Assembly (NCBI RefSeq): GCF_000455205.1
Contig: NZ_AUWQ01000046.1
Location: 1-63,953 of the forward strand
Source of the DNA: Mycobacterium sp. UM_CSW
Lineage (GTDB): Bacteria; Actinomycetota; Actinomycetes; Mycobacteriales; Mycobacteriaceae
DNA: 63,953 nt
Reading direction: 5' to 3'
The position numbers were made by a program, and so were the translations under genes. This document shows positions 12,614 to 63,953 of the stretch, piece by piece (within the stretch, counting starts at the first letter, position 1; the number at the start of each line of letters is the position of its first letter). The notes under the pieces were generated by a model, which saw only the letters and a program-made list of their open reading frames with translations, was not told where the DNA came from and ran no database searches.

Positions 12614-12705
12614 GATCGAAATCCCCTTCACCCCTAGGACATTCGATACGCGGGCGCGACGGTCACGCGGCTCCTGCGAGCGTGGCCGTCGGATATGACC
12701 CTACG

Positions 12706-17089: not shown

Positions 17090-17184
17090 GGTGGAGCATT
17101 TCGACTAGGGCCATTCGTGCCGCGAAGCCCTATTGTTAGCGAATCGGGTGGGTGTACTGGTGTACTCGAGAACTAGGGGCCCGA

Positions 17185-20100: not shown

Positions 20101-20364
20101 GTGGAAACCCTGCTGCAACGCGGCCGGCCAGAGGATCTGGATGGGGCTGCCGGAGCGGTGGAGCGGCTGGCCGCCCTGCCGACCGAGCCCGGATTTGTAT
20201 TGTTCGACGTTGCGCTGCTGCGGTTGCATGCATTGCTGGCGCGGGCTCGCGGTGAAGACGCCGCGTATCACGACTTCGCCGAGCGCTATCACGCGACGTC
20301 AACATCATTTGGCTTCGAAGGACACATGGCGGCGGCGCAGGTACTACTGGAGCAAAACGCGTAG
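17185..20364 (+). CDS. Zinc-ribbon / class III cyclase-homology / AAA ATPase regulatory protein
   Basis: A 1059-aa multidomain protein. Residues about 8-27 form a double CxxC zinc ribbon (CATCEIE and FCDSCG). Residues about 38-215 are a class III nucleotidyl cyclase domain with metal-binding Asps in LFADVVGS and KFTGDGIMAVF. Residues about 235-500 are a STAND-type AAA ATPase with Walker A GPVGIGKS near 262 and Walker B VIEDAHW near 383. The remainder is helical, TPR-like repeats. In the cyclase domain the usual transition-state segment VNxAxR reads VGMAQR, so the Asn is Gly and activity may be weak or lost. The ATG at 17185 follows a purine-rich AGGGG. Target unknown. Confidence 0.85.
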   Translation: MAAAASTCATCEIELREGARFCDSCGSPITPQQSAEYKQVTVLFADVVGSMDIAEAVGAERLREIMADLFDRCAAIVDRYAGTVDKFTGDGIMAVFGAPIALEDHALCSCLAALDIQDAVQELAGQVQSRDGIHLQLRVGLNSGEVIAGDVGSNPWNYTAVGLQVGMAQRMESVAPPGGVMLSESTARLVDEVAALGTPENVVLKGVEDPVVAWPLLSMRTGRFHYSRRVSKLVGRSWELATLTALLDRSVAGRGCVVGVVGPVGIGKSRVVDEIVAVAIPRLIRVFSTYCESHTGEVPFLVVERLMRAAFGVEDMSDHQARALLRERVPAADHADQVLLEDTLGIRDPDDELPDIAPDARRRRLTALVCDAALASTAPTVYVIEDAHWIDPSSESLLADFISVVPRTHSLVLITYRPEYTGALSQLAGAQKISLTPLSFSDTKALVAQLLGTDPSVAGLVERIAERAAGNPFFVEEIVRDLTDRNVLQGAPGAYLNASGSTDVAVPATLQAAIAARIDRLDGATKATLNAAAVIGVRFRADLLAALADCSTLDNLVHAQLVEQVNFTPVAEYAFRQPLIQTVAYRSQLKAGRAALHTRLAAALAERDPVSADENAALIAEHLEAAGDLAAAFGWHMRAGTWLTRRDIRAARMSWQRACHVADRLPGDQPGRAAMQIAPRALLSLSAWRFGGRVDDTVFDELHELATAADDKASLAMGMAGQIMALNTYGRYRQAAAMVTEFVNLLDSLGDPVLSVTLRPGALTAKFGAGELAEVVRLADRIIDEARADPQNDDTLFGSSSRIATMMRAAARMCWGAPHWRQDVDHAVALGDEIEPGTRSIMLLHIYGIGVVNGLLVPDAAMLRESEQALRAAEERGDQFALAWARFLRGLILVQLDDAHRAQGFDLLAQSQVTGSQDRLNQAALQQLKVERAKEQSRAGDLDNAIAQLRAVVEAHSATDPTTFHAAATAAFVETLLQRGRPEDLDGAAGAVERLAALPTEPGFVLFDVALLRLHALLARARGEDAAYHDFAERYHATSTSFGFEGHMAAAQVLLEQNA

Positions 20365-47784: not shown

Positions 47785-48246
47785 TCAGAGCCAGTAGCGC
47801 TCGCTGAAGGTGGTCAGGATGAAGCCGGCCGCCGAGGCGACCATGAGCAGGACGAGCGACAGGACCGGCCAGAAGGACATGTACCAGCCCTTCAGGAGGG
47901 AAACGAACGGGCCGATTCCGGCCGCGGCGATCGCCGCGCCGATGCCGCCCCACACAACCGGGTGAATGTAGTAGTCGATCCCGAACGGGACGGGTCCGCA
48001 GTCCTCGCCCTGGCAGACCTTCCCGAGGTAGCCGAAGAGCCGCGCCGGCCAGTTCGTCGCCGTGGCGAGGACCAGGAGCAGCACCAGCAGCGTGACCGTG
48101 CAGATGACGTCCCAGGCCGCGATCCGCAGGCGAAGCACCCGGGGCGGCTCGTGGTCGCGCTGGTCGGGGCGCTCGGGCGCCGGCGGGGCGGCGATGTGGT
48201 CACCCGGGTTGGGGTCGTCGGTCTGGTGCCGCGAAGCCATGGCCAT
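47785..48246 (-). CDS. Hypothetical membrane protein (Rv1567c position)
   Basis: A 153-aa protein with a hydrophilic Pro/Asp/Arg N-terminus (residues 1-40) and three hydrophobic segments (about 44-62, 90-112, 122-145). A short loop holds two cysteines ([11 protein letters not shown]) that could form a disulfide outside the membrane. It occupies the place of Mtb Rv1567c, a 94-aa membrane protein, but is longer. Start at 48246 or two codons later. Divergent from bioA; function unknown. Confidence 0.75.
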
Positions 48247-48303
48247 AGATGGTCCCCGATGGCCGCGAATTGTGCGAACCGGCTGCCTCTACGCTCGATC
48301 TCT

Positions 48304-49608
48304 ATGCCTGCGGCGAGGGCCGGGCTGACGCCCGAGGAGATCAGCGCGATCGACGCGGCGCACCTGTGGCATCCCTACAGCACCATTGGCCGGGAGGCGA
48401 TGGCGCCCGTCGTGGCCGTCGCCGCCCGGGGCACCCGGCTGACGCTGATCCGCGACGGCGAGCCCGTCGAGGCGCTCGACGCGATGAGCTCCTGGTGGAC
48501 CGCGATCCACGGGCACGGGCACCCGGACCTGGACGCCGCGCTCGCCGCGCAGCTGGCCACGATGAACCACGTCATGTTCGGCGGGCTGACCCACGAGCCC
48601 GCGGCCCGGCTGGCGCGGCTGCTGGTGGAGATCACGCCGGCGGGGTTGGAGACGGTGTTCTTCAGCGACTCGGGGTCGGTGTCGGTGGAGGTGGCGGTCA
48701 AGATGGCGCTGCAATACTGGCGCAGCCGCGGCCGGCCCGCCAAGCACCGGCTGATGACCTGGCGCGGCGGCTACCACGGCGACACCTTCACCCCGATGAG
48801 CATCTGCGACCCCGACGGCGGCATGCACTCGCTGTGGACCGACATCCTGGCGCGACAGGTGTTCGCCCCCCAGGTGCCCGGCGACTACGACGCCGCCTAC
48901 AGTGCGGCGTTCGAGGCACAGCTTGCAGAGCACGCCGACGAACTGGCGGCCGTCGTCGTCGAGCCGGTGGTACAGGGTGCGGGTGGGATGCGCTTTCACG
49001 ATCCGCGCTACCTGACCGATCTTCGGGACATGTGCCGGCGGCACGACGTGCTGCTGATCTTCGACGAGATCGCCACCGGCTTCGGGCGCACCGGCGAGCT
49101 GTTCGCCGCCGACCACGCCGGAGTGAGCCCGGACATCATGTGCGTCGGCAAGGCGCTGACCGGCGGGTACGTCAGCCTGGCCGCCACGCTGTGCAGCACC
49201 GACATTGCGGAAACCATCAGCTCGGGGGAGGCCGGCGCGCTGATGCACGGGCCCACGTTCATGGCCAATCCGCTGGCCTGCGCGGTGTCGGTGGCCAGCG
49301 TCGAGCTGCTGCTCGCCCAGGACTGGCGATCCAGGGTGGGGGAGATATCCGCGGGACTGGTGGACGGACTGCGACCGGCCCGCGAGCTGCCCGGTGTGGC
49401 CGACGTGCGGGTGTGCGGCGCGATCGGCGTCATCGAATGCGACCGGCCGGTCGACCTGGCCGTCGCCACCCCGGCGGCGCTGGACCACGGCGTGTGGCTG
49501 CGCCCGTTCCGCAACCTGATCTACGCGATGCCGCCGTACGTGAGCTCCGGCGAGGAGATCGCGCAGATCACGTCGGCGATGGTCGAGGTTGCGCGGGTGG
49601 TGGGCTGA
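48304..49608 (+). CDS. bioA: Adenosylmethionine-8-amino-7-oxononanoate aminotransferase
   Basis: A 434-aa PLP enzyme of biotin synthesis, the Mtb Rv1568 homologue (437 aa). It converts KAPA to DAPA using SAM as amino donor. Visible features are the N-terminal HLWHPYS, the substrate region [23 protein letters not shown], the Asp of [15 protein letters not shown] and the PLP Lys in VGKALTGGY near residue 282. A TACGCT box ends 9 nt before the ATG, suggesting a nearly leaderless start. In Mtb bioF1 and bioD follow; here they do not. Confidence 0.95.
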
Positions 49609-49706
49609 ACCGGTCGCGGTCACTCAGCGAATTCTCAGTAGATTCTTCGAAGCCGGTTAGCTCGGCTCAAAGGGTCCTCAAAGTCGCAGGCCGCAGGATC
49701 TACCTC

Positions 49707-50177
49707 ATGATGAGTCAGTCGCTCTGCGCCAAGTTGATCGACCGCTACGTACGCACCTGCGGCCTGCAGTTCCTCAAGGGCGAGCACGACGGCGAATACT
49801 TCTGTGTCGCCAACGCCGATGCCAGGCGGCTGCACATCCACCTCGAGATCTCACGGTCGTTCGGCGACATGTTGATCATCGGGATCGCTCCGGCGGGCTC
49901 CTTCCGCGCCGCCGACCGCCCCTGGCTCACCCGGTTAGCTGACACGTGGAACAAGCAGAACCGCAAAGTCACCGCGATCGTGCACGGTTGCTCGGACCCG
50001 CAACGCGTCGGCCTCGTGGCCCGCAGGTCCCGGTGGATCCAGGACAGCATCTCGTTCGAGGAGTTCGCTTCCTTCGTAGACCGCACCATCGCCGACGCCG
50101 TCGACCTGTTTGCTGAGGCGACCGTGGTTGTCGAGTTGACCTCGACGGCGCAGCCGATGCTGCGCGACGCCAGCTGA
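49707..50177 (+). CDS. YbjN/type III chaperone-like small protein
   Basis: A 156-aa protein with two adjacent ATG starts (49707, 49710). The sequence FLKGEHDGEYFCVANADARR and LHIHLEISRSFGDMLIIGIA, then a region with RLADTWNKQNRKVTAIVHG, fits the alpha/beta YbjN fold, which resembles type III secretion chaperones. The homology call is from pattern only. It follows bioA by 98 nt and precedes a PE gene, so a link to type VII secretion is possible but unproven. Confidence 0.6.
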   Translation: MMSQSLCAKLIDRYVRTCGLQFLKGEHDGEYFCVANADARRLHIHLEISRSFGDMLIIGIAPAGSFRAADRPWLTRLADTWNKQNRKVTAIVHGCSDPQRVGLVARRSRWIQDSISFEEFASFVDRTIADAVDLFAEATVVVELTSTAQPMLRDAS

Positions 50178-50534
50178 GATTTCTGACGCGCACGGCCGGG
50201 CGCGACGCCGCCGCCGTCCCGCCAGTGTGGGCCCGACCGCCGACGATGAAGTTGTGGCTGATCGAAGCCAACCGGGACGGTTTCCGGGGCGACTCTAACC
50301 GCGCGTCCCGGTAGGAGCGCAACGACCCGGAGGACCGCATGCTTTTCGGCCTGTGCGCACCATGTTCGAAAGCCGCCTAGCAGCGGGTATGCGGCGCCGC
50401 CAAGTTTTGTTGATCGCGATTCCCGGAAGCGCCCGCGCGCCGTTGTACTTGTGTGTAATCTCCGTGACGGGCGTGACCCAGTCATCCTTCGTGCTTTGCC
50501 GCTGGGTCCGTTGGTGACCGGCTGGAGGATAGAT
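50178..50534. other. 357-bp gap upstream of the PE gene
   Basis: No gene is supported here. It contains a perfect 9-bp inverted repeat, ACCGGGACG (50271-50279) with CGTCCCGGT (50304-50312), around a 24-nt loop. The PE ribosome site GGAGG lies just before the ATG. The promoter of the PE gene is probably in the AT-richer part near 50400-50470. Confidence 0.5.
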
Positions 50535-51071
50535 ATGTCGTATGTGATGGCGTCGCCGGAGTTGATGGCGGCAGCAGCGGCGGATGTGGCTGGTATCGGT
50601 TCGACGCTCCGCGCGGCACACCTGGCGGCGGCGGCCCCGACCGTCGGGGTGATACCGGCGGCTGCCGACGAGGTGTCGGCGGCCGTCGCCCAGGTGTTCT
50701 CCCAGGCCGCCCAGAGCTTCCAGGGGCTGGTCGGGAAGGCGTCGGCGTTCGGTCAGCAGTTCGCGCAGCAGTTGACCGCGGGCGGCGGCGCCTATGCGGC
50801 CGCCGAGGCCGTCAATGCCGCGTCCGTGTCCGCCGATTCGAGCTCGATTATTCAACAGCTCATCGACGCGCCGAGCGGGTTCCTCGCAGCGTTTAACAAC
50901 CTCTATAACAGCACGACGGGCGTTTTGAAATTCTTCTTGAGCTTCCTCGAGCTACCGGTCTATATCGCATATGAGGGACTGGTTTTGACGTATTTGACGC
51001 TGGCCGGATTGATCGCCTTGGAGCAAACCTTGGCCAAATTCCTTACCGGCGCACCGATCCCGATTCCGTAA
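50535..51071 (+). CDS. PE-family protein
   Basis: A 178-aa protein. Residues 1-100 are a typical PE domain: MSYVMASPELMAAAAADVAG, two amphipathic helices and the type VII secretion signal Y87-x3-E91 in AYAAAEAVN. The C-terminal 80 residues are hydrophobic and not of the PGRS type. No PPE or ESX gene is adjacent. It is convergent with the mmpL pair, 24 bp away. PE proteins accompany the mmpS-mmpL export units of the glycopeptidolipid loci, so an accessory surface role in lipid export is plausible. Confidence 0.9.
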   Translation: MSYVMASPELMAAAAADVAGIGSTLRAAHLAAAAPTVGVIPAAADEVSAAVAQVFSQAAQSFQGLVGKASAFGQQFAQQLTAGGGAYAAAEAVNAASVSADSSSIIQQLIDAPSGFLAAFNNLYNSTTGVLKFFLSFLELPVYIAYEGLVLTYLTLAGLIALEQTLAKFLTGAPIPIP

Positions 51072-51095
51072 TTTTCCCGCGCTATTGCCTTCGGC

Positions 51096-54011
51096 CTAGA
51101 CCGTCAGCCGGGGGAGTTCGACCGTGGCCGGGTCGTCGTCGCTGCGCTCCTCGTGCAGCAGCAGGGACCGCACCAGCGCGCGTGGGCCCTCGGAGCGAAG
51201 CATGTAGCTGGCCGGGCGCGGCCGGACCGTCTGGGGCCACCAGAACCACCTTCCGAGCAGCGCTGCGATCGACGGTGTCATGAACGAACGCACGACCAAC
51301 GTGTCGAACAACAGGCCCAGGCCGATCGTGGTCCCCAGCTGGCCGATGACGAGCAAATCGCTGAATATCATCGAGGCCATGGTGAAGGCGAATACCAGGC
51401 CCGCGTTCGTCACGACCTTTCCGGTGCCACCCATGGCGCGGATGATGCCGGTGTTTATCCCGGCGGCTATTTCCTCTTTCATGCGGGCCACCAGCAGCAA
51501 GTTGTAGTCGGATCCCACCGCCAACAGGACGATCACCGACATCGGGAGCACCATCCAGTGCAATTTGATGCCCAGAACGTACTGCCACACCAAAACGGAC
51601 AGCCCGAACGATGCGCCCAGTGAAAGCACCACCGTCCCCACGATCACCAAGGCGGCGACAAAACTTCGCGTCAACGCCAGCATGATGACGAAAATAAGGC
51701 AGAGCGCACCGACGAGCGCGATCCACAAATCGTATTTCGAGCCGTCGTCGAAGTCCTTGTAGGTCGCCGCGGCGCCGGCGATGGAAATCTTGGCACTCTC
51801 CAGCGGAGTCGTCTTGAGCGCCTCTTCGGCCGCCGTCCTGATCGGATTGATTCGCGCTATGCCCTCGGGCGTCGCGGGATCGCCACGGTGGGAAATGATG
51901 AACCGGGCCGCCTTCCCGTCCGGGGACACGAAGGAGCTCATCGCGCGCTGGAAGTCGGCGTTTTGGAAGACATCGGGCGGCAGGAAGAAGGAGTCGTCAT
52001 TCTTGGCGGCGTCGAACGCCTGCCCCATGGTGGTCGCGTTCCGGCTAGCTTCGTCCAGCTGACCGAACAGCCCGGACGTGGTGCTGTGGTTCGTCAACAG
52101 CGTCACGCGCGTGGCTTCCGCGATCGCGATCAGTGGCGGCGTCAGCAGGAGCAGCTGTGCCGCCAGCTCGTCCGCCTTCTCCGCATCCTTAACGACCATG
52201 TGCAATCTGTCGCTGAGCGCATCGACGCTGTCGAACAGCTGAAATATCGACCTCAACGCAAAGCAGATGGGGATGTCGTAGCAGTGCTTCTCCCAGTAGA
52301 AGTAGCTCCGAATCGGCCTGAAGAAGTCGTCGAAATCCGCCACGTGGCCTTCCAGCTCGTCCACGATGGATTCCATCTCTTTCGCCACGCCTACCGTTTC
52401 ATGGGCGACGGCGGTGAGCTGCTTCTGCAATTCGTACAGGTGCTTCAATATTGCGATCTGTTTGGCAAGCGAGTCGGCCTCGGTGAGCATGTCGTTCATG
52501 CGGGCCTTCATGAATTGCATGTTTTGCATCATGGACGAATTTTGGAGGCTGATCAGGAACGGTATCGACGTGTGTTCGATCGGCGTTCCCTCGGGCCTGG
52601 TTATGCCCTGCACCCGAGAAATTCCCGGAACGCGGAATATCGCCTTGGCTATTTTGTGCAGCACCAAAAAGTCCGCCGGATTGCGCATGTCGTGGTCCGC
52701 TTCGATCATCAGAATGTCCGGCAGCATTCGCGATTGCGAGAAATGGCGGTCGGCGGCGGCAAACCCCAAATTAGCGGGAAGGTCTTTAGGCAGATATGGC
52801 CGGTCGTCGTAGCTTGTTTTGTAGCCCGGAAGCGTCACCAGGCCGACCAGGGCGACCGCCAACGTCGTGACGAGGATGGGCGCGGGCCAGCGGACAATCG
52901 CGGTGCCGAACCCCCGCCATCGTTTTTGCGCGAGCCTGCGCTTGGGGTCACACAGCCCGAACCGGCTCCCGGTGGTCAGGACCGCCGGGACCAGCGTGAC
53001 CGCGACGGCGACCGCGACGAGCATGCCCACCGCGCAGGGCACGCCGATCGTCTGGAAAATCGGCATCCGAGTGAAGCTCAGGCACAGCATCGCGCCGGCG
53101 ATCGTCAAACCGGAGCCCAGGACGACGGGAGCGACGCCGCGGTAGGTGGTGTAGTACGCGGTTTCGGGATCCTCACCGGCCTGGCGGGCCTCCTGATAGC
53201 GACCGAAGAAGAAGATTCCGTAGTCGGTCCCGGCCGCCATCGACAGCGTCACCAGCAGGTTGATGGCGAACGTCGAGAGCACAACCATGTTGTGATCGCC
53301 GAGGAATGCGATGATCCCTCGGGCCGTGCCCACTTCGACGCCCACCCCGATCACCACCAGGATCACGGTGGTGACCGACCGGTAGACCAGCAGCAGGACC
53401 ACGAAGATGATCGCCCCGGCTATCAGGGTCATCTTCAGCAGCGAGTCGTTGCCACTGCGCACCATGTCCGGGATGAGCGCCGCCGGGCCGGTGAGATGGG
53501 CCTCGACACCGGGCGGGGGCGGCGTCTGCTTGATGATCTGGCGGACCGCGGTCACGGATTCCTGCGCCAGGGTGGTGCCCTGATTGCCGGCCAGGTTCAG
53601 CTGCACGTACGCGGCCTTGCCGTCGGCACTTTCCACGCCCGTCGCCGTGAGGCGATCTCCCCACAGGTCCTGCACGTGTTCGACGTGCCGGGGGTCGTTT
53701 CTCAACTCGCGGACCAGTTCCCGGTAGTACGTGCGCGCGTCGTTCCCGAGCGGCTGCTTCCCCTCCAGCACGATCATCGCGAAGCTGTCCGAATCGGACT
53801 CCTTGAAGGCCTTGCCCATGCTCGTCATGGCCCGCACCGACGGTGCATCCTGCGGTGCCAGGGGTACGGAGTGCTCTTCGCCGACCCGCTCCAAGGGAGG
53901 CACCCCGAACGTCACAAGCGCCGTCAAGGCCACCCACGCCAGGATGACGACGAGGGAAATCCGGCGGATCGTCCGCGCAAAGAACGGTGGCCGTTGAACT
54001 TCGGTGCTCAT
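51096..54011 (-). CDS. MmpL-family transporter, second of a tandem pair
   Basis: A 971-aa RND transporter starting [10 protein letters not shown]. It has 11-12 membrane segments and two porter domains. The proton-relay Asp-Tyr pairs are [16 protein letters not shown] and [33 protein letters not shown] is conserved. Upstream is another mmpL, separated by 144 bp without a gene (54012-54155). Two MmpL proteins downstream of one MmpS resemble the mmpS4-mmpL4a-mmpL4b set that exports glycopeptidolipids, where both MmpL are needed. Confidence 0.93.
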
Positions 54012-54155
54012 GTGGCCTTCACCGTGCGGCCGGTGGACGCGCACGGACCGGGCGCCTCGAAGCGGCAGCCAGCGCTTCCAGTATCGCCTGGTGCCACGAT
54101 GCTCCCCACGGTTGCCGGTCTCGTCCTGAACTGGAAATGCGCCACTTGATCGCCG

Positions 54156-57023
54156 CTATCTCAGCAGTAAGGCACGCACCAACGGACGGGGTCCCGCGGG
54201 CCGCAGCATGGTGCTCGCGGGCCGGGGGCGAACCTGTTGCGGCCACCAGAACCAGCGGCCCAGCAGCGCGGCGATGGACGGCGTCATGAACGCGCGCACC
54301 ACCAGCGTGTCGAACAGCAACCCCAGGCCGATCGTCGTGCCCACCTGCCCGATGGTGCGCAGGTCGCTGACGAGCATGGACCCCATGGTGAACGCGAACA
54401 CCAGCCCCGCGTTCGTCACGACCTTGCCGGTGCCGCCCATGGCGCGAATGATGCCGGTGTTTATGCCTGCGCCAATTTCCTCTTTCATGCGGGCCACCAG
54501 CAGCAAGTTATAGTCGGAGCCCACCGCCAAAAGGACGATCACCGACATCACAAGCACTGACCAATGTATTTGTATGCCGAGCAAGTTCTGCCAGGCGAAT
54601 ACGGAGAGCCCGAAGGAAGCGCCGAGCGACAGCAATACCGTACCGACGATGACCAGGGCGGCGATGAAACTCCGCGTCATGATCAGCATGACGATGAAAA
54701 TCAGGCAGAGCGCGGCGATTCCCGCGATCATGAGGTCGATTGTCGATGCCCGCACCTGGTCCCGCACCGACGCCGCCGTGCCGGATAGGTAAATCTTCGA
54801 GTCTTCCAGCGGAGTTCCCTTGAGCGCCTCCTCGGCGGCGCTCTTGATCGCGTCCACCCGCGAAAGGCCGTCGGACGACGAGGGGTCGCCCTTCTGCAGG
54901 ATGAGCATGCGGACGTCCTTGCCGTCCGGCGACACGAAGATGTTCATGATTCGCTGGAAGTCTTTGTTCTTCAACGTTTCCGGCGGCAGGTAGAAGGAAT
55001 CGTCGTTCTGGGCGGTATCGAACGCCCTCCCCATGGCGGTCGAGTTGTTGCTGTTGTCGCCCATGTTGCCGAGTACGCCGGACATGGTGCTGTGCATGGT
55101 GAGCAGCATGGTCCGCGATTCCTGCATGATCGCGATCGTCGCCGGCAGCTGGGCCAGGATCTGCGGCAGCAGCGCGTCGACCTGATCGAGGTCCGCCACC
55201 AGCAGGATCAGCTTGTCGCTCACCGCGTCGACGCCGTCGAGCGAATCAAAGATGCTTCTGATCGCGAAGCAAATCGGAATGTCGTAGCAGTGCTTTTCCC
55301 AATAGAAGTAACTGCGGAGCGGCCTGAAGAAATCTTCGAAATCGGCGATGTGATCGCGAAGTTCGCTCGTGAGGGCCTGCATTTCGTGCGTGTTGGCGAC
55401 GACGTCATGCGTGGTGGCGACCAGTTCCTTCATCACCTCGTACATGCGCTGCGTGATGTTGATCGCTTCGCTGATCAGGTCGGCCTGCTTGAGCAGGTCG
55501 TTCATGCGCGCCCGCTGAAAAGTGAGGAATTGCTGCTGCCCGGCGGCTTGCATGCTGAGCAAGTACGGGATCGTCGTGTGCTTGATCGGGGTTCCCTCGG
55601 GCCGCGTCACGGCCTGCACCGACGAAATCCCCGGCACGGCCAGGACGGCCTTGGCCAGTTTATCCAGCACCAGAAAATCGGCCGAATCGCGAAGGTCATG
55701 ATTGGCCTCGACCAACAGAATTTCGGGTGCCATCATTGCCGACGGGGGGAAATGCCGCGCCGCGGCCTCGTACCCCAAATTGCCGGGGATATCTTTGGGG
55801 ATGAACTTCTGGTCGTTGTAGCTGGGGTTGTAGCCCGGCAGCGTCAACAGCCCGATAAGCGTCACCGCAAGTGCCGCGGCGAGGATGGGTGCAGGCCAGC
55901 GAACGATCGCCGTGCCCACCCGTCGCCATACGCGATAGCTGATTCTCCTTTTGGGTTCGAACAATCCGAACCGGCTTCCGACCGTCAGAACCGCCGGGAT
56001 CAGCGTGATGGCGACCGCGACGGCGACCACAACGGCCACCGCGCACGGGACGGCCAGCACGTAGAACGAGGGCAGCCGCGTAAAGACCAGGCAGTAGAGT
56101 GCTCCGGCGATCGTCAAACCCGAGGCTACGACGACCTTGGTGACCCCGTGGTACGTGGTGTAGAAAGCCGACTCTCGGTCGCTGCCGGCCTGACGCGCCT
56201 CCTGATACCGCCCAATGAAAAATATCCCGTAGTCGGTTCCGGCCGCGATTACGAGGGATACCAGCAGGTTTACGGCGAGGGTGCTAAGCCCGATGATCCC
56301 GTGATAGCCGATAAATGCGACAACTCCCCGGGCAACCATTAATTCAATGCCGACCACGACCAACAACAGAACCACGGTGATGACCGAACGGTAGACGATA
56401 AGCAGCGTAAAGAAGATCACCGCGATACTTACCAGCGTAATTGTCGCAACAGTTCTATCGCCACTGTGGCTCATGTCCGAAATGATCGCCGCGGGCCCGG
56501 TGACAAACGCTTTGACCCCTTGCGGCGCCGGCGTCCGCGCGACGATGTGCTGAACGGCTTCGATCGATTCGTTGCCCGCGCTGATAATCACCAGAACATA
56601 TGCGGCCTTACCATCGGCGCTTTGCGCGGCCTGTCTGGTTAATTCATCGCCCCAGAAATCGTTGACATGTACTACATGCTTCGGATCGTCTTTTAACTGA
56701 GAAATCAGTCGATCGTAATATCGGTGGGCGTCGTCGCCGAGGGGTTGCTGGCCCTCCAATACGATCGTCGCCACACTAGTTGAACCCGATTGACCAGATT
56801 GGTCGGCCGCCTTGAAGTCTTCGTTCAGCCGTTGTGACGCCGTGGCGGACGGCGCGTTAGTGAGCGTCGGGGAAACCGAATGCTGGTTCTCGACCTGCTC
56901 CAGCGGCGGGACGAAGAAATTCAACACCGCGATGATCGCCAACCACCCCAGAATTATGGCGACCGAAAATCGACGGATCGTCCGCGCCACCAAAGGCCGA
57001 CCGGTCTGCAGCTGGTTGGTCAT
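54156..57023 (-). CDS. MmpL-family transporter, first of a tandem pair
   Basis: A 955-aa RND transporter starting [11 protein letters not shown]. Motifs [16 protein letters not shown] and [15 protein letters not shown] carry the proton-relay residues, and [18 protein letters not shown] marks the second porter domain. The ATG overlaps the mmpS stop by 4 nt. Part of the gene is AT-rich for this genome: 56401-56460 is 28 of 60 G+C, against 37 of 60 at 43201-43260 in treX. This suggests a different origin or relaxed codon choice. Confidence 0.93.
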
Positions 57024-57589
57024 GAGCCCTTCAGCATGCAGGACGTAAAGGCGCTCACCTCGTTGGTGACCTTCTCGGATTTGACCACTCCGTCGAGGAG
57101 GATGCGGCAACCGATGCTGTCGGTATCACCCTGCGCCGCAACACTTCCGATGCCCGTGGCCGCCGTGACCGCGAATTCCAGCGACCACGGCAGGGTCGCC
57201 GCGTCAATATGCTGCGGAGTACCGGTGTCGTCGTAGTAGCTGATCAGTGCCACGGTCCCCGGTGGTCCGAAGACTTCGTACCTCAGGTGCTGGGGGTTGT
57301 AGGGCTTGTTGTCGACTCTGGTGTCGGCATACGAGAGGCGCTTTTCGGAGCCGAAGAGGCCGTGCAAGCGCGACACGGTGAATCCGCCGACGGCGATCAC
57401 GGCCACGATAACCAGCGGGATCCAAAGCCGCCGCAGGCCTCGGAAGATCGCGGGCCCCGTGTTGCGACGACTCTTTTTAGGTGCGCCTTGGACCGGAGGC
57501 GTCAATGGCGGCGGGCCGGCATCTTGCCCGCTCTCGACGGCGATATCGGACCGCGCCGGCTCAACATCGCGCACACTGCCCCAGACCAC
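57020..57589 (-). CDS. MmpS-family accessory protein with extended N-terminus
   Basis: A 189-aa protein. A 50-residue Pro/Ser/Arg cytosolic extension precedes one membrane segment ([20 protein letters not shown]) and the MmpS periplasmic domain. Core motifs are [38 protein letters not shown] and the C-terminal SCMLKGS. The GTG at 57589 is uncertain; a GTG at 57574 is possible. It is coupled to the following mmpL. Confidence 0.88.
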
Positions 57590-57714
57590 CGCACCACCCT
57601 AACCGACACGAGTTGAATTACGGATGCAAACCTAATGGAGTCCAACAGCGCCTGACCAGGATTTAAGGAACTTCTCAGCATGGCTTCCGCGAAGCTGGCG
57701 CAGGGAACGATTCG

Positions 57715-59127
57715 TTACTCGATCTCACCGGTCAGGCCGAACTCCGCGAGCGCCCGCGCGGCCAGTTCGCGCAGTGCGGGCTTGGTGTTCTCGGCGCCCG
57801 GGTGGTAGGCCACGACGGTGAGGTAAATCGTGCCGATGCCCGGCGTGCGGCACGACACCACCTGCATATGGCCGCCCGTTCGCTCAAGCTGCTGACGCGT
57901 TGCGCGCTGCCTCGTTCCACGGGCCCAGGCGTATTCGCATTGGGTGCCGTCCGCACAGCTGACCACCGAGCCCGCGTCGCCGAGGTTGGAAAAGATCACC
58001 GGCATGTCGGGGTCGTTGAGCTGCGTCTCGACGCCCCGTTTCCATGTCCGCTTGGGGGTGAAGGGCGACAGGGCAGCCAATTGCGAAGATTCGTCCGGTT
58101 TACTCTGCAGAGCCTTGAGTGCCTGCTTGATGCCGGCTCGCGCGTCGCGCAGATCCGTGGTCAACCCGGTCGGGTCGAGACTGACCCGGGCAAACGACAC
58201 CGCGAGCGCACGGGTATCACCCTCGGTGCGGTCGGTCAGAACGATTTGTAGAGTCACGGCGCCGTCAGACGCCCGTCGGCGCCCCAGGTGCTCCCCGAGT
58301 TTGGCGGCCAACGCGGCGGCCAGCGTGGTGCTCGTTCCACCTAGCGACTTCGCGCGCGCATCCCACTGATCCAGGTCGACGACGATCGCGATGCCCGGCA
58401 CGATGACCGGGTCCGCGCCGTCGTCGACACGGCGCGCGACGGCCCGTGGTGCCGGCGACGATGGGGCCACGTCGCGCCGCTGACGGCGACTCAGTTTTGC
58501 CAACGCGACCAGCGCCCGAGCAACCTCGGGTGCGTCTCGAGCTGTTTGACCGAGATCCTGCGCCAGCGCGCGCAGCCGGGTCCGCGAGCGTGGCGGCGGG
58601 TAGCCGAGATCGCGGTTGGTGCCCAGGATCGCGTCGGCGACCGCGACCAGACCTCCGACGCCGTCAATGATGTAGTGAGAGACCACCCACGTGACCGCCG
58701 TCGAGCCGTCCGTCAGGGGAAGCACGCTGAGATGCCAGCCGGGTCCCGCTTCTGGGTCAACGGGAACCTGCGAGCGTTCGTCCGCCCAGTCGCTGAGATC
58801 GGCGCGTGGGCGGGCGCGGTCGGCGAAATGTATCGCCGCCGGCCCGCGATCGAGAACCCACCGATGCCGGCCGAACGGCAGCGGCGACCGCTCGATAAGC
58901 CGTCCGGACAACCCGTAACCAAAATTGTGGTGAAACCGTTTCAGCCCGTCGAAGTCGATATCGTGCTCGTAGACCCACACGACCTGCATGACTTCCGTCT
59001 GGCCGATGGCGCGCTGTCCGGCAACGAAGCCTTGGTCCACCAATGCCAGCAGATTGTCCGGCCGGCCTTCGCCGTTGGACGCGTATTCGTTAGAGGATGC
59101 GCGGGCGCGGCGTATCCGGATTGGCAC
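57715..59127 (-). CDS. WS/DGAT- or PapA-like acyltransferase, copy 1
   Basis: A 470-aa protein of the condensation/WS-DGAT superfamily. The active-site motif HHxxxDG reads SHYIIDG near residue 150, keeping the catalytic His and Asp-Gly but not the first His. Other blocks are MQVVWVYEHDIDFDGL and VIFSNLGDAGSVV, then GHMQVVSCRTPGIG. The GTG at 59127 follows AGGAGG; an in-frame ATG at 59199 is a leader shared with copy 2. Acyl transfer to an alcohol or sugar is inferred. It shares most of its sequence plan with copy 2. Confidence 0.85.
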   Translation of the reverse strand: MPIRIRRARASSNEYASNGEGRPDNLLALVDQGFVAGQRAIGQTEVMQVVWVYEHDIDFDGLKRFHHNFGYGLSGRLIERSPLPFGRHRWVLDRGPAAIHFADRARPRADLSDWADERSQVPVDPEAGPGWHLSVLPLTDGSTAVTWVVSHYIIDGVGGLVAVADAILGTNRDLGYPPPRSRTRLRALAQDLGQTARDAPEVARALVALAKLSRRQRRDVAPSSPAPRAVARRVDDGADPVIVPGIAIVVDLDQWDARAKSLGGTSTTLAAALAAKLGEHLGRRRASDGAVTLQIVLTDRTEGDTRALAVSFARVSLDPTGLTTDLRDARAGIKQALKALQSKPDESSQLAALSPFTPKRTWKRGVETQLNDPDMPVIFSNLGDAGSVVSCADGTQCEYAWARGTRQRATRQQLERTGGHMQVVSCRTPGIGTIYLTVVAYHPGAENTKPALRELAARALAEFGLTGEIE

Positions 59128-59180
59128 TGATTGGCCTCCTAAGACTCCAACATTCGCCCGTGACGCCTCGCGGGCATTCC

Positions 59181-59206
59181 TGCGGTCGAGCCGATTCATC
59201 ACAGCA
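59181..59206 (-). repeat. Leader repeat upstream of acyltransferase copy 1
   Basis: TGCGGTCGAGCCGATTCATC continues to ACAGCAG here and matches 60818-60843 upstream of copy 2 with one difference. Similarity continues to about 59306, so the upstream region was duplicated with the gene. On the minus strand it contains ATGAATCGG at 59199, in frame with copy 1. Confidence 0.75.
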
Positions 59207-59325
59207 GATTGGCATCGGGTGCTTCGGCTCGGCCGAGCGTTTAGCCAAAACTTAACCGGGTTCGGGGGCGCCTCGTGGCTGAAATGCACTCTGCGGCAGC
59301 CAAATCGCCGTCGGGGAAGGACCCG

Positions 59326-60717
59326 TTATTCGATCTCGCCAGTCAGGTCGAACTCGGCCAGCGAGCGCGCCGCCGTCCCACGCAAAGCGGGCTTCGTGTT
59401 CTCGGCGCCGGGATGGTAAGCGAGCACGTGGATGAAAATCTTGCCGATTCCCGGCGAGCGGAGAGAAAGCAGTTGCAATTGCCCGCCTGTTCGCTCCAGC
59501 GTTTGTCGGGTTACGTGCTGCCTGATCCCTCGTGCGTAGGCGTACTCGCAGTGGGTGCCATCGAGGTAGCCGACCACCGAGCCGACGTCGCCGAGGTTAG
59601 AACAAACTACGGGGCGATCGGGGTCGGCGAGCGCCGCGTCGACTCCCCGTCGCCACGTCCGTTTCGGCGTGAACGGGGCAAGCGGAGCCAGCAGCGCTGA
59701 CTCTGCCGGCGTTTCCCGCAACGTCTTCAGTGCCTGGTTGATGGCGGCGCGGGCGTCACGCAGATCGGTCGTTACCAGCGTCGGGTCGATGCTGACGCGG
59801 GCAAAGGACACTGCGATCGCGCGCGTGTCGCGAGGCGCGCGTTCGCTTATGGGCAGTTGCAGCGTGACGGCGCCGTCACCCGGACGTCGGCGCCCCATGC
59901 GCTCCCCGAGTTTCGCGGCGAGCCCCGCGGCCAGCGTGTTACTCGTGCCGCCAAGAGCCTTGGCCCGGGCGTCCCAATGGTCCAGTTCGATGCCGATCGT
60001 GATGCCGGGCACGACGACGGGATCGTCGCCGCTGCCTCCGCCAAGGGCGATGGGTCGCGGTGACGGCGAGCGGGCGGCTTCGCGCCGTTGCCGACGCATC
60101 AGTTTGGTAAACGCGACAAGCGCCCGGGCGGCCTCAGGTGCGTCCCGGACCGTTCGGCCGGCATCCTGAACCAGCGCACGCAGTCGAGTGCGAGAACGCG
60201 GCGGCGAGTACCCCAGCTCGCGCTTGTCGCCCCAGAGCGCTTCAACTATCGCGCTCAACAGCCCGATGCCGTCGACCAAATAGTGGGATGCCACCAGGGT
60301 GACCGCGGTCGAGCCGTCCGTCAGTGGGAGGACAGCGAGATGCCAGCCGGGGCCCGACTCCGGATCAACGGGCACTTGCGAGCGTTCATCAGCCCAGTCG
60401 CTGAGTTCAGCGCGTGGACGGGCGCACTCAGCGACATCGATGCCCGGCGACCCGCCATCCAAGACCCACCGATGCCGGCCGAACGGCAGCGGCGAACGCT
60501 CGATCAGCCGCCCAAACAACCCGTAACGAAAATTGTCGTGGAAACGCCTGAGCCCATCGAAGTCGATGGCGTGCTCATAAACCCACACGACCTGCATGAC
60601 TTCCTCCAGGCCGGCGGCATGCTGGCCGGCAAAGAAGCCTTGGTCCACGAACGCCAGCCGATCGTCCGGCCGCGCATCACCGTTGGATGGGCGTGCGGGA
60701 CGTACCCGGACTCGCAC
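59326..60717 (-). CDS. WS/DGAT- or PapA-like acyltransferase, copy 2
   Basis: A 463-aa paralogue of the downstream gene with the same domain plan. The active-site motif reads SHYLVDG near residue 145. Shared blocks include MQVVWVYEHAIDFDGL, FGRHRWVLDGG, WHLAVLPLTDGSTAV and PVVCSNLGDVGSVV. The GTG at 60717 follows a GGAGG site and aligns with the copy 1 GTG, supporting both starts. The two copies are separated by 198 bp and are probably one transcript. Divergence suggests different acyl donors or acceptors. Confidence 0.85.
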   Translation of the reverse strand: MRVRVRPARPSNGDARPDDRLAFVDQGFFAGQHAAGLEEVMQVVWVYEHAIDFDGLRRFHDNFRYGLFGRLIERSPLPFGRHRWVLDGGSPGIDVAECARPRAELSDWADERSQVPVDPESGPGWHLAVLPLTDGSTAVTLVASHYLVDGIGLLSAIVEALWGDKRELGYSPPRSRTRLRALVQDAGRTVRDAPEAARALVAFTKLMRRQRREAARSPSPRPIALGGGSGDDPVVVPGITIGIELDHWDARAKALGGTSNTLAAGLAAKLGERMGRRRPGDGAVTLQLPISERAPRDTRAIAVSFARVSIDPTLVTTDLRDARAAINQALKTLRETPAESALLAPLAPFTPKRTWRRGVDAALADPDRPVVCSNLGDVGSVVGYLDGTHCEYAYARGIRQHVTRQTLERTGGQLQLLSLRSPGIGKIFIHVLAYHPGAENTKPALRGTAARSLAEFDLTGEIE

Positions 60718-60775
60718 TAATCAGCCTCCACTGGCACACGATTCGCCGGTAACGCCTGGTGGTGCGTACACCCGA

Positions 60776-60835
60776 TCACAGGGGGACGACGCCGCGAATG
60801 GCGGCGTAGGCGTCAATGCGGTCGAACCGATTCAT
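60776..60835 (-). CDS. Putative 19-aa leader ORF upstream of acyltransferase copy 2
   Basis: ATG at 60835 encodes MNRFDRIDAYAAIRGVVPL, then TGA at 60776-60778, 58 nt before the copy 2 GTG. The corresponding MNRLDRR in copy 1 is in frame with the enzyme and has no stop. The first codons are conserved between copies. It may be a translated leader or an ancestral N-terminus cut off by mutation. Confidence 0.35.
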   Translation of the reverse strand: MNRFDRIDAYAAIRGVVPL

Positions 60836-60843
60836 CACAGCAG
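60818..60843 (-). repeat. Leader repeat upstream of acyltransferase copy 2
   Basis: Matches 59181-59206 with one difference. The flanking words also recur, such as CTCGGCCG with AAC/GACTT, and GGCTGAAA with GCA and TCTG, so the duplicated unit reaches about 60980. Confidence 0.75.
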
Positions 60844-61140
60844 ACTAGCCTCGGTGCATCCGCTCGGCCGTGCATTCGGCTAAGACTTGACCGTTGACCA
60901 ATTCCGGTCGGGTTTCATTCCGTGTTGCGTTGACGCCCACGACGGAATTGGCTGAAACGCAGTCTGTGGGAGGCCAATACCCCCTGTAGCCGGCGGCATT
61001 GGCGGGCCCTTTCAAAACTTCGGATTGGCGGTTGATCGCACCGGTGTCGGGGTTATGCTGCTGGGCGGCTGAGCTGGGCACCGGGTCTGCCGCTTTCATT
61101 TCGCAGAACGCGCACGGGAAGTGAAGGACCAGGATTACGC

Positions 61141-62409
61141 ATGAAATTTGTGCTGGCGTTCTATGGGACTCGCGGCGATGTCGAGCCCGGCGTCGCGCTC
61201 GGCCGTGAGTTGCGACGCCGCGGGCACGACGTGTGCATGGCGGTCCCGCCCGACCTGGTCAGCTTCGCCGAGGCAGCGGGGCTCACGGCGACCGACTACG
61301 GGCCGGATATCCAGACGTGGCTGGAATCGACGCGCAACTTCTGGACGTATTTCTTCCGGAACTTCTGGCGGATTCGGGATGTGCGCGCATACCTGCGGGA
61401 ATCTCGGGAGCCCGGCACGCGGCATTGGGCCGAGATGAGCAAGATGCTGACCTCGCTGACGGACGGGTCCGACCTGCTGTTGACCGGCATGAGCTACCAG
61501 GAGCTCGCCGCCAACGTCGCTGAGTATCGCGGCATTCCGCTGGCCACGCTGCTTTGGTTCCCGATACGCGTCAACGGCCGCCTGGTTCCGACGCTGCCGC
61601 CCCCGGTCATCCGGTCGGCGATGAGGGTCTACGACTGGCTGGTTTGGCGTGGCGTCAAAAAGGTCGAGGAGGCACAGCGTCAGGAATTGGGCCTACCGAA
61701 GGCCACCGGCTCCGGGTCGGCGCGGATCGCCGAACGAGGATCGCTGGAAATCCAGGCATATGACGAAGTGTGCTTTCCCGGGCTGGCCGCCGAATGGGCG
61801 AAATTCGACCGTCAGCGGCCCTTTGTCGGCACGCTGACGCTGGAATCACCGACGGATGCCGACGATGAGGTTGCCTCGTGGATCGCCGCGGGGGAACCGC
61901 CGATTTTTTTCGGATTCGGCAGCATTCCCGTCGAATCCGCGGCCGAGACGATCGCCATGATCGGTAGGGCATGTGCGCGGTTGGGTGAACGAGCGCTGGT
62001 TTGCGCCGCCGCGACCGATTTCGGCGACGTCCCGCATTTCGACCACGTCAAAGTGGTGGGCGCGATGAATTACGCGGCAATCTTTCCGGCTTGCCGCGCG
62101 GTCGTTCACCACGGTGGTGCGGGCACCACGGCCGCGGGCCTGCGCGCCGGAGTCCCGACGCTGATCCTCTGGATGGCGGACGTTCAGCTGATCTGGGGAG
62201 CCGCGGTGAAACGGCTCAAGGTTGGCACCGCAAGGCGCTTTTCGACCGCTACCGAGAAATCACTGGTCGAGGACCTGCGGACCATCCTCGCCCCGCAATA
62301 CGTCACCCGGGCCCGTGAGATCGCCGCTCGGATGACCAAACCCGCCGAAAGCGTTGCGGCCGCGGCGAATTTTGTGGAAGACTTCGCCCGCCTCAACCGA
62401 GTTGGGTGA
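61141..62409 (+). CDS. GT1-family glycosyltransferase (UGT/Rv1524 type)
   Basis: A 422-aa enzyme with the GT-B fold. The N-terminal acceptor domain begins MKFVLAFYGTRGDVEPGVAL, typical of glycolipid and macrolide transferases. The C-terminal donor domain has VHHGGAGTTAAGLRAGVPT near residue 320, the nucleotide-sugar signature. It resembles Mtb Rv1524/Rv1526c and the GtfA/GtfB enzymes that glycosylate glycopeptidolipids. It is divergent from the acyltransferase pair and probably glycosylates the same lipid. A weak GAAGGA site lies 5' of the ATG. Confidence 0.9.
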   Translation: MKFVLAFYGTRGDVEPGVALGRELRRRGHDVCMAVPPDLVSFAEAAGLTATDYGPDIQTWLESTRNFWTYFFRNFWRIRDVRAYLRESREPGTRHWAEMSKMLTSLTDGSDLLLTGMSYQELAANVAEYRGIPLATLLWFPIRVNGRLVPTLPPPVIRSAMRVYDWLVWRGVKKVEEAQRQELGLPKATGSGSARIAERGSLEIQAYDEVCFPGLAAEWAKFDRQRPFVGTLTLESPTDADDEVASWIAAGEPPIFFGFGSIPVESAAETIAMIGRACARLGERALVCAAATDFGDVPHFDHVKVVGAMNYAAIFPACRAVVHHGGAGTTAAGLRAGVPTLILWMADVQLIWGAAVKRLKVGTARRFSTATEKSLVEDLRTILAPQYVTRAREIAARMTKPAESVAAAANFVEDFARLNRVG

Positions 62410-62443
62410 ATCAGGTTCGCGCACAGGCAGTTTCAGTCCCAGG

Positions 62444-63953
62444 TCAGGTGGCGAAATGCGCCTGGTTCACGTGTTCGGCCACCCGCAAGGCGTTGGCCGC
62501 CACCGTCAGGCTGGGATTCAACCCGGCGCTGGATGGAAAAAACGAGGCGTCCACCACGTAGAGGTTGTCCACCTCGTGCGCCCGGTTCTGTGGGTTGAGA
62601 GCGCTGGTTTTGGGATCGGTGCCGAAGCGGCACGTGCCGCAGACATGGCCCAGGGTGGAGTTGTTTGCGCCGGTTCGCAGTGTGAGGGTGCGATACGGCT
62701 TCAACACCTCTTTTATCTTCCGAATGAACACTGAGCGGCGGTCGACCTCGCTGGGGTGCAAACGGTATTGAAGCCGCAGCCGCTGGCGCCCATCCTCGCC
62801 GGGCCGGTCGCTTGGCAGGACACGGTTGTCCAGATACGGCAGGTCCTCCATGATCGGGGCCAGCACCAGCCCGCCATTGAAGAAGCGATCATAGATGGGC
62901 CGCACCGCCGGGCTGATCAGGCGCAGTGCCTTCGGCTGCCATCCGGGCTGGTTGGTGAACATATCCATCGACGCCAAATTCGCCATCGCGCCCGCCGACT
63001 GCACGGTGCCGTACTTCTGCCCGTCGGAGAAATAGAAATCGTTGAACCCGATTTCCTTGTTCTCGGCGGTGATCCTGCAGCCGGGTTGCGGCCAGACCTC
63101 GATCCAATCCATCAGATGGCGCATCAGGTTGCGCCCCACCACATCTGAGCCGTTGGCCAGCCCACTCGGCCAGTCACCGGAGCGGGAGTTGAGTAACAAG
63201 ACCGGGGTGGCCAGCGCGCCGGCGGCCAGCACCACGACCTTGCCTTTCAACGCCAGCATGTCGGAGCCATGCTGGGCGATCACCTGCTGCACCCGGGTGC
63301 GATCGGCCTCGAGGCGCACGACTCGGCACTGGTCCAGCAGGTGCGCCCCGTGCTCGGTAACGGCGGGCAGCACGCCGTTTCGGCCCGCGTCGTTCTTGCA
63401 GGACCGCTCGCAGAGATGGGCCTGACAGGTGGGACAGCCGTCGGTGTAGTCGCAGGCCATCGGCAGGTGGTAGGGGTGCAAGCCGCGCCCTGCCAGGTAG
63501 TTGACCAGTGGCTGATTGTCGGGCGAAAACGGCGGGGCCGCAGGCAAACCCACGTCGGCGGCCTCGGGGCGCAGGGGGTCGGGCGCGCCGCGGACCCCCA
63601 GCAGTTTTTCGGCCTCGGCGTACCACGGACTCAGCTCGTCATAGGTGATGGGCCAGGCCTCGGGCACGGTGGACTCCCCGGGGTCGCGGAAGTTTTGCCG
63701 CGGGGTGAAGTCCTGGGCGAAGAATCGCTCGCAGACCATGCCGTACAGGGCGGAGGACCCGCCGGTGCCGCTGCCGATGAACGGCACGAACCGTTTCGGG
63801 CGCCGCCCGCTGATGTCTTCGATCTCGTCAGTGGAGCGCCCGGCCCGGGCTAACGCGTCGTAGTAGGCCTCCGCCGAACGGGCGGCGCGCGGTTCGGCGA
63901 GTTCGGGCATGGCGGCGCGAATCGTTCCGGGGGTGCCGGGCAGTGTGGAGCGG
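62444..63953 (-). CDS. GMC-family oxidoreductase, N-terminus beyond the window
   Basis: The frame stays open through the window end, so the FAD-binding GxGxxG is missing and the ATG at 63910 is probably internal. Visible parts are the GMC block GSGTGGSSALYGM, a cysteine cluster (C-x5-C-x2-C-x4-C-x3-C in CDYTDGCPTCQAHLCERSC), DVVGRNLMRHL, and the C-terminal NLYVVDASFFPSSAGLNPSL, TVAANALR. The family oxidises alcohols or sterols to aldehydes or ketones. The cysteines may bind a metal or form disulfides. It is convergent with the glycosyltransferase, 34 bp away. Confidence 0.85.
   Translation of the reverse strand, partial: RSTLPGTPGTIRAAMPELAEPRAARSAEAYYDALARAGRSTDEIEDISGRRPKRFVPFIGSGTGGSSALYGMVCERFFAQDFTPRQNFRDPGESTVPEAWPITYDELSPWYAEAEKLLGVRGAPDPLRPEAADVGLPAAPPFSPDNQPLVNYLAGRGLHPYHLPMACDYTDGCPTCQAHLCERSCKNDAGRNGVLPAVTEHGAHLLDQCRVVRLEADRTRVQQVIAQHGSDMLALKGKVVVLAAGALATPVLLLNSRSGDWPSGLANGSDVVGRNLMRHLMDWIEVWPQPGCRITAENKEIGFNDFYFSDGQKYGTVQSAGAMANLASMDMFTNQPGWQPKALRLISPAVRPIYDRFFNGGLVLAPIMEDLPYLDNRVLPSDRPGEDGRQRLRLQYRLHPSEVDRRSVFIRKIKEVLKPYRTLTLRTGANNSTLGHVCGTCRFGTDPKTSALNPQNRAHEVDNLYVVDASFFPSSAGLNPSLTVAANALRVAEHVNQAHFAT

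What the first reader, a model, noticed from the sequence alone, without database searches (positions are those of the whole stretch)
49700..63953. Candidate undescribed glycolipid synthesis and export locus after bioA
In Mtb bioA is followed by bioF1 and bioD. Here it is followed by a YbjN-like protein, a lone PE protein, mmpS-mmpL-mmpL, two PapA/WS-DGAT-like acyltransferases, a GT1 glycosyltransferase and a GMC oxidoreductase. The set has the parts to acylate, glycosylate, oxidise and export a lipid. It resembles the export unit of glycopeptidolipids (one MmpS, two MmpL, a PE) but has no NRPS or PKS in the window.
Basis: partly seen in the sequence, partly recalled or inferred. Interest (0 to 1): 0.82.

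Follow-up and report, generated by a model that had tools for sequence, protein, structure and literature searches.

The report
Export end of glycopeptidolipid gene cluster
The genes beside bioA are the first 14 kb of a roughly 90-kb cluster that probably builds, decorates and exports a glycopeptidolipid-type surface lipid; the peptide and polyketide synthases looked missing only because the sequence contig ends there.

Summary
The gene list is right, and the set is linked and conserved. Its reading as a glycolipid locus without an NRPS or PKS is an assembly-edge effect. The window is a whole contig (C46) and stops inside the GMC gene. In M. paraense, and in a 5-Mb contig of another genome (G134, which lacks the free PapA-like genes), this left end runs on into about 90 kb of sugar, FAAL-PKS, PKS, MbtH and NRPS genes. 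Contigs C112 and C58 of the window's own genome are collinear with that. The cluster sits between bioA and bioF1. The MmpL pair falls with the MmpL4a/MmpL4b-type pairs of other glycopeptidolipid (GPL) loci. The synthase is not the classical one: a one-module NRPS (C-A-T-E) and a three-module NRPS ending E-C-T, with no reductase motif. Adenylation codes suggest Ser-Thr-Leu-Thr, epimerised at positions 1 and 4. An ICMT-like methyltransferase beside the NRPS suggests a methyl ester. PapA-like acyltransferases, one fused to a FAAL-PKS, probably acylate the glycan. This is a new variant of a known kind, close in module layout to clusters predicted to make the M. xenopi-type serine GPL. No product has been shown; the listings of my paper searches held no description of this cluster.

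The parts
47962..49608 (+). bioA (open frame; the true start lies inside it). Left border of the cluster, not part of it
   Evidence: Aminotran_3 1e-113; the G134 orthologue passes the NCBIfam bioA cut-off
49707..50177 (+). YbjN-like small protein, conserved at this place
   Evidence: five orthologues, 59-94% identical to the window copy; weak YbjN match
50535..51071 (+). PE-domain protein (start inferred inside ORF 50451-51071)
   Evidence: Pfam PE 1.9e-28
51096..54044 (-). MmpL, second of the pair (mmpL4b-type)
   Evidence: MMPL 2.7e-221; in the tree it falls with the b copies of the other GPL-type loci
54156..57110 (-). MmpL, first of the pair (mmpL4a-type)
   Evidence: MMPL 2.7e-206; in the tree it falls with the a copies
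57020..57589 (-). MmpS (mmpS4-type by position)
   Evidence: Mycobact_memb 1.5e-55
57715..59289 (-). PapA-like acyltransferase B, orthologous to the single copy at this place in relatives
   Evidence: tree; 88-89% identical in L042 and L075
59326..60717 (-). PapA-like acyltransferase A, an extra, older paralogue
   Evidence: 71% identical to B; groups with the M. palustre copy at 87/91
61141..62409 (+). GT1-type glycosyltransferase
   Evidence: EryCIII-like_C and Glyco_transf_28
62444..63953 (-). GMC oxidoreductase, cut by the contig end
   Evidence: GMC_oxred_N and GMC_oxred_C; open to the edge

Best explanation
Window 49700-63953 is the export and tailoring end of a roughly 90-kb GPL-type cluster that occupies the junction between bioA and bioF1. 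Inferred working: a fatty acyl chain, probably extended by the bimodular PKS, is joined by the first condensation domain of NRPS1 to residue 1. NRPS1 and NRPS2 build a tetrapeptide, best guess Ser-Thr-Leu-Thr with residues 1 and 4 epimerised. The terminal C-T and the ICMT-like methyltransferase take the place of the alaninol-forming reductase of classical GPLs and leave a carboxyl methyl ester. GT1 enzymes build a glycan on the hydroxy residues, probably with a uronic acid made by the UDP-sugar dehydrogenase and epimerase. GMC and GFO/IDH/MocA oxidoreductases, acting in pairs, probably invert sugar hydroxyls. AT3-SGNH enzymes acetylate; the free and PKS-fused PapA-like enzymes add longer acyl groups to the glycan. 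MmpS and the MmpL pair move the lipid across the inner membrane. Shown: gene content, order, linkage, domain order, MmpL grouping. Inferred: every chemical step, and the exact product.
For: The contig is the whole window. M. paraense G017:C49 carries bioA and the set through NRPS2 on one contig. 21 of 21 genes called on own C58 and 5 of 7 on C112 match it in the same order at 82-97%; the other two C112 genes lie in a stretch that aligns as DNA at 84%. In L042 the window's right end and C112's left end lie about 4.5 kb apart in the same orientation. G134 has bioA, the cluster and then bioB on one contig. Domains: AMP ligase, carrier, KS, AT, a second carrier match and a PapA-like domain at 1791-2233; PKS with 2 KS, 2 AT, 2 KR, 1 DH, 1 ER; MbtH; NRPS1 C-A-T-E, NRPS2 C-A-T-C-A-T-C-A-T-E-C-T. 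MmpL tree. A codes: DFWTLGAVY is module 6, and DFWSVGMVH module 7, of a GL8P-like synthase in G050; measured GL8Pb has Leu and Thr there (PMC11978893). ICMT-like gene next to the NRPS2 end in own, M. paraense, G134, G097, E787 and G060, and one called gene from it in G172; none in the fetched stretches of G164, G183, G050 and G065.
Against: No product, expression or mutant data. The residue-1 code (DVCSIALVH) has no directly measured match; Ser rests on likeness to predicted Ser-Ser-Phe-Thr synthases in genomes not named M. xenopi. In G186 that synthase has an epimerase in module 1, whereas the review gives residue 1 of M. xenopi GPL as L-Ser (PMC7261415). E-C-T ends also occur without an ICMT-like gene beside them: none in 60 kb of GA-0227b, and in G186 and G117 the ICMT-like genes lie away from the tetrapeptide synthase. 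The two MmpL groups have only 87/77 and 86/75 support. Direct joining of C46, C112 and C58 in the own genome was not seen, only inferred from relatives, and C112 begins in a repeat. G164 is called classical from its synthase architecture, not from a named species.
Confidence: 0.87

Rival explanations
1. A self-contained glycolipid locus: an acylated, glycosylated, oxidised lipid without a peptide core, made from precursors encoded elsewhere.
For: In the reported stretch 49700-63953 no NRPS or PKS is encoded.
Against: The contig ends inside the cluster; relatives show unbroken continuation into PKS and NRPS genes, and the own contigs C112 and C58 are collinear with them.
Confidence: 0.03
2. [quoted passage not shown]
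For: Same export trio type, MbtH, GT1s and DrrA-like gene as G164.
Against: The A-domain codes differ from those of G164; two rather than three epimerase motifs; no terminal reductase motif, where G164 has one. Own condensation-domain hits (16) lie only on C58, C2 and in four weak hits on C7, C23 and C33; C2 is presumably mycobactin and was not examined.
Confidence: 0.02
3. A trehalose-based lipid cluster (lipooligosaccharide or trehalose polyphleate type) that happens to lie beside an NRPS.
For: FAAL, PKS, PapA-like, MmpL and PE genes also mark those loci (recalled, not tested here).
Against: The MmpL pair falls with the GPL-type pairs and not with nine other MmpLs of this genome; NRPS, MbtH and GT1 genes lie in one conserved block.
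Confidence: 0.03
4. A GPL-type cluster that is present but silent or decayed in this strain.
For: No expression data; the genome is in 186 contigs.
Against: The called C58 and C112 frames have lengths close to their M. paraense counterparts and even identity, 82-97%, in 26 of 28.
Confidence: 0.08

Closest known systems
Serine-containing GPL of M. xenopi (Ser-Ser-Phe-allo-Thr; PMC7261415 passages)
   Same: Tetrapeptide with Thr last; clusters predicted to make this peptide (G186, GA-0227b) share the four-module layout with E in modules 1 and 4 and the terminal C-T; PapA-like genes lie nearby
   Different: Own codes predict Thr-Leu in place of Ser-Phe at positions 2 and 3; own cluster has an ICMT-like gene at the NRPS end, G186 and GA-0227b do not; large PKS and FAAL-PKS here, while the review gives M. 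xenopi's acyl chain as C12. Neither genome is named M. xenopi
Classical C-type GPL locus (mps1, mps2, mmpS4-mmpL4a-mmpL4b; PMC5996870 passages)
   Same: Export trio, MbtH, GT1s; NRPS1 is 60-66% identical to stretches of frames of the size of two-module mps1 (about 3.4-3.5 kaa)
   Different: No reductase motif, other A codes, one plus three modules, PapA-like and GMC enzymes
GL8P locus of M. abscessus (PMC11978893, sections 6 and 12)
   Same: NRPS, MbtH, MmpS and MmpL, and in the GL8P-like G050 a PapA-like gene, 56% identical; the GL8P glycan carries a putative hydroxylated lauric acid, an acyl group such as PapA-like enzymes could add
   Different: Octapeptide from hexa- and bimodular NRPS; no GMC gene of this family in G050 (best E 5.6e-7), no ICMT-like gene in its fetched 60 kb

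Membership tests
GPL-type cluster (broad) | NRPS with MbtH next to it | tested here: met
   (own C58)
GPL-type cluster (broad) | mmpS-mmpL-mmpL of the mmpL4a/4b type | tested here: met
   group support 86/75 and 87/77, not starred
GPL-type cluster (broad) | several GT1 genes and O-methyl or O-acyl tailoring genes | tested here: met
GPL-type cluster (broad) | product is an N-acylated, glycosylated peptide | not testable with these tools
   no lipid data
C-type GPL | A-domain order Phe-Thr-Ala-Ala(ol) | tested here: not met
   against G164
C-type GPL | terminal reductase domain | tested here: not met
   GATGFLG motif found in G164, absent here; the last domains are C-T; no reductase family among the Pfam matches of either NRPS
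M. xenopi-type serine GPL | four modules ending E-C-T | tested here: met
M. xenopi-type serine GPL | peptide Ser-Ser-Phe-Thr | tested here: not met
   own codes at positions 2 and 3 fit Thr and Leu
M. xenopi-type serine GPL | alkali-labile lipid | not testable with these tools
   needs the lipid
GL8P | eight modules | tested here: not met
   four A domains
Trehalose polyphleate or lipooligosaccharide locus | trehalose-loading gene set | not tested
   considered from recall only

The most novel reading that the evidence does not exclude
A distinct class of mycobacterial GPL: a methyl-esterified lipotetrapeptide (Ser-Thr-Leu-allo-Thr) released by a terminal C-T instead of a reductase, whose uronic-acid-bearing glycan is re-configured on the sugar by paired GMC and GFO/IDH enzymes and esterified with a polyketide chain by a FAAL-PKS that carries its own PapA-like transferase. 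The whole cluster was inserted as a block in the middle of the biotin operon.
Probability: 0.35. Interest if true: 0.65.

Novelty: new variant of a known kind. Interest (0 to 1): 0.5.

Why it matters
GPLs shape colony form, serotype and host contact in nontuberculous mycobacteria, but genes have mainly been tied to the classical type and, in 2025, to GL8P. The serine type of M. xenopi has a known structure; in the rows listed by my searches (long hit lists were cut) no gene cluster for it turned up. The comparison gives testable links from genes to structure for this wider group: E-C-T in place of a reductase, an ICMT-like enzyme for a methyl-ester end in the group that has one, PapA-like enzymes for acylated sugars, GMC/GFO pairs for altered sugars. 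It also shows how a contig edge can make a synthase cluster look like something else.

Tried and rejected
Looked for the missing synthase first in the own genome: 16 condensation-domain hits, on C58 (7), C2 (5) and four weak ones on C7, C23 and C33. Considered a recent tandem duplication of the PapA-like pair; rejected, since A and B fall in different branches. Considered that PapA-like proteins mark this cluster alone; rejected, since 159 of 198 sampled genomes have some relative at E<=0.001. Considered the GMC gene as mark of the tetrapeptide type; rejected: 51 of 198 genomes have a copy at 70% identity or more (my tally from the rows), and some, such as G036 and G080, have it on one contig with an mps1-sized NRPS frame. 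GMC-GFO pairing is incomplete: 20 of 29 called GMC genes have a GFO gene within two genes; 4 of the 9 failures lie at a locus edge; two of the 29 are the same gene seen twice (L060 in G017, L062 in E787). A general rule that E-C-T goes with an ICMT-like neighbour was tested and does not hold. Position 4 of some codes in relatives differs between because the motif was changed; the own codes do not. Sequence search for a solved PapA-like relative gave nothing significant. Promoter and tRNA scans gave nothing useful. A paper search for M. simiae GPLs with glucuronic acid found none.
Full report
What is in the window. The window is the whole of contig C46 of a 6.39-Mb Mycobacterium genome in 186 contigs. 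From bioA rightwards: bioA (+), a YbjN-like protein (+), PE (+), mmpL (-), mmpL (-), mmpS (-), two PapA/WS-DGAT-like proteins (-), a GT1 (+) and a GMC oxidoreductase (-) that runs off the contig.

Conservation. A scan of the species-genome collection with short peptide patterns from acyltransferase A gave 38 loci. Four (L042, L043, L060 M. paraense, L075) carry bioA, ybjN, PE, mmpL, mmpL, mmpS, pap, gtf and gmc in this order; a fifth (L062/L112, M. sp. E787) does too, with three PE genes and more gtf genes. M. palustre (L039) has gmc-gtf-pap-mmpS-mmpL-mmpL-PE-PE, but the fetched stretch ended before bioA could be seen. The other loci carry parts of the set, often pap with gtf or gmc.

Where the synthase is. 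In M. paraense (G017:C49) the block continues on the same contig past NRPS2: DrrA-like gene, GT1, FAAL-PKS, AT3-SGNH, GMC, GFO/IDH, hydrolase, UDP-sugar dehydrogenase, epimerase, further AT3-SGNH and GT1 genes and an epimerase, a TylF-type methyltransferase, two GT1s, PKS, sulfotransferase, methyltransferase, MbtH, NRPS1, NRPS2, ICMT-like gene (domain names on the own copies; the FAAL label for the AMP ligase is inferred). All 21 genes called on own C58 and 5 of 7 on C112 match this stretch in the same order at 82-97%. The other two C112 genes have no good counterpart among the M. paraense gene calls, but the DNA there aligns at 84%. M. paraense has a few genes in between that C58 and C112 lack. 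In L042 the window's right end and C112's left end lie about 4.5 kb apart in the same orientation; M. paraense gives much the same distance. C112 begins in about eight copies of a 201-base repeat, so the exact gap is unsure. The window and C112 both end in a GMC gene, the two copies 82% identical. Such repeats probably broke the assembly (inference).

Place in the genome. G134 has bioA, cluster, two PE-domain genes, bioB, BsaP and an L-aspartate-oxidase-like gene on one 5-Mb contig; bioA to bioB is 91 kb. In G097 the right end also lies beside bioB. In E787 the right end is NRPS2, ICMT-like, PE-like and then bioF. In the own genome and M. paraense bioF lies 0.8-0.9 kb from a contig end. In G164, whose classical-looking synthase lies about 41 kb away, the called bioA and bioF frames are 6 bases apart. 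So the cluster occupies the bioA-bioF1 junction. No bioF was found in G134 or G097 (best E about 1e-5; completeness 94 and 97%).

Export unit. In a tree of 49 MmpL proteins the window pair falls into two groups that hold the a and b copies of the other GPL-type loci, those of G164 and of the GL8P-like G050 included (support 86/75 and 87/77, so moderate). Nine other MmpLs of the own genome fall outside both; further own MmpLs were not in the tree. In M. abscessus mmpS4-mmpL4a-mmpL4b is required for GPL transport (PMC5996870 passages).

Synthase. NRPS1 (1521 aa) is C-A-T-E. NRPS2 (4211 aa) is C-A-T-C-A-T-C-A-T-E-C-T (Pfam counts; order and the E/C distinction from motifs). Codes (nine positions, taken out by motif; the position scheme is recalled): DVCSIALVH, DFWSVGMVH, DFWTLGAVY, DFWSVGMVH. 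G164: DFWTVAGVC, DYWSVGMVH, DVWCFAAIY, DVWSVAAIY, with three epimerases and a reductase motif, which fits Phe-Thr-Ala-alaninol. G050's synthase gives codes that can be read along GL8P, with DFWTLGAVY as module 6 and DFWSVGMVH as module 7. GL8Pb is TAFIYLTT by structure although prediction gave Thr at position 6 (PMC11978893 section 12), so DFWTLGAVY is best read as Leu. G050 is unnamed, so this is an inference. G186 and GA-0227b give DVWSVAMVH, then DVCSVAMVH or DVWSVAMVH, a Phe-type code and a Thr code, ending E-C-T, which fits Ser-Ser-Phe-Thr of M. xenopi (PMC7261415 passages); hence Ser for residue 1 here. Against it: an epimerase motif in module 1 of both where L-Ser is reported.

Tailoring. 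The ICMT-like gene lies next to the NRPS2 end in own, M. paraense, G134, G097, E787 and G060, and one called gene from it in G172. It was not found in 80 kb of G164 or in 60 kb each of G183, G050, G065 and GA-0227b; in G186 and G117 it lies away from the tetrapeptide synthase. So it goes with this branch, not with every E-C-T synthase; carboxyl methylation is inferred from the family. Residues 1791-2233 of the FAAL-PKS are a PapA-like domain, 46% identical to acyltransferase A; the same fusion is in M. paraense, G134, G097 and a second own protein on C13. In the fetched stretches G134 and G097 have the fusion but no free PapA-like gene, and E787 has two free genes and no FAAL-PKS call. G050 has one free gene, and GL8P carries a putative hydroxylated lauric acid on rhamnose. 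Together this suggests acylation of the glycan. GMC genes at 70% identity or more occur in 51 of 198 genomes, and no listed row lies between 40 and 69%. In 32 of the 51 an NRPS1-like row lies on the same contig, always within 65 kb; for 19 none was listed, the own genome included; the table was cut, so 32 is a lower bound. GMC and GFO/IDH genes are near neighbours in 20 of 29 cases.

How widespread. In the listed rows NRPS1 relatives at 75% identity or more over most of the protein are in 7 of 198 sampled genomes, own included (G134 89, G017 88, G097 79, G165 79, G148 76, G058 75 but cut by a contig end); more distant one-plus-three-module sets occur in others, for example G172.

Literature. 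I read the abstract, sections 6 and 12 and passages of PMC11978893, and passages of PMC5996870 and PMC7261415; other papers were seen as search listings only. The rows listed by searches held no paper that by title or abstract start describes this cluster. The supplementary Data S1 of PMC11978893, which lists predicted second loci across species, could not be read and may include relatives.

Verdict. Observation confirmed; interpretation partly right; a new variant of the GPL kind with a predicted but unproven product.

Noticed in passing
L122 (own C112) 1-1582: About eight copies of a 201-base repeat, probably part of a PE_PGRS-like gene between the GMC gene and the DrrA-like gene; a 1157-aa frame lies there in L042.
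   Followed up: partly
G134 and G097: No bioF found although bioA is kept in G134; the cluster may have replaced bioF there, or the draft genomes miss it. bioD was not searched.
   Followed up: partly
own C13 53653 (L123): A second long protein with a C-terminal PapA-like domain (3224 aa), outside this cluster.
   Followed up: no
own C33 (L118) and C23 (L120, L121): Further loci with PapA-like, MmpL and, on C23, GT1 genes, possibly other surface lipids.
   Followed up: no
own C58 36665-49300: The last NRPS module is C-T without an A domain; how its carrier domain is loaded or used is unknown. Shared with G186, G117, G060, G172 and GA-0227b.
   Followed up: partly
window 9252-12631: A second mmpS-mmpL pair, not of the GPL-pair type in the tree.
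   Followed up: partly
window 17152-20364: Adenylate/guanylate cyclase domain joined to an AAA ATPase domain, 1070 aa.
   Followed up: no
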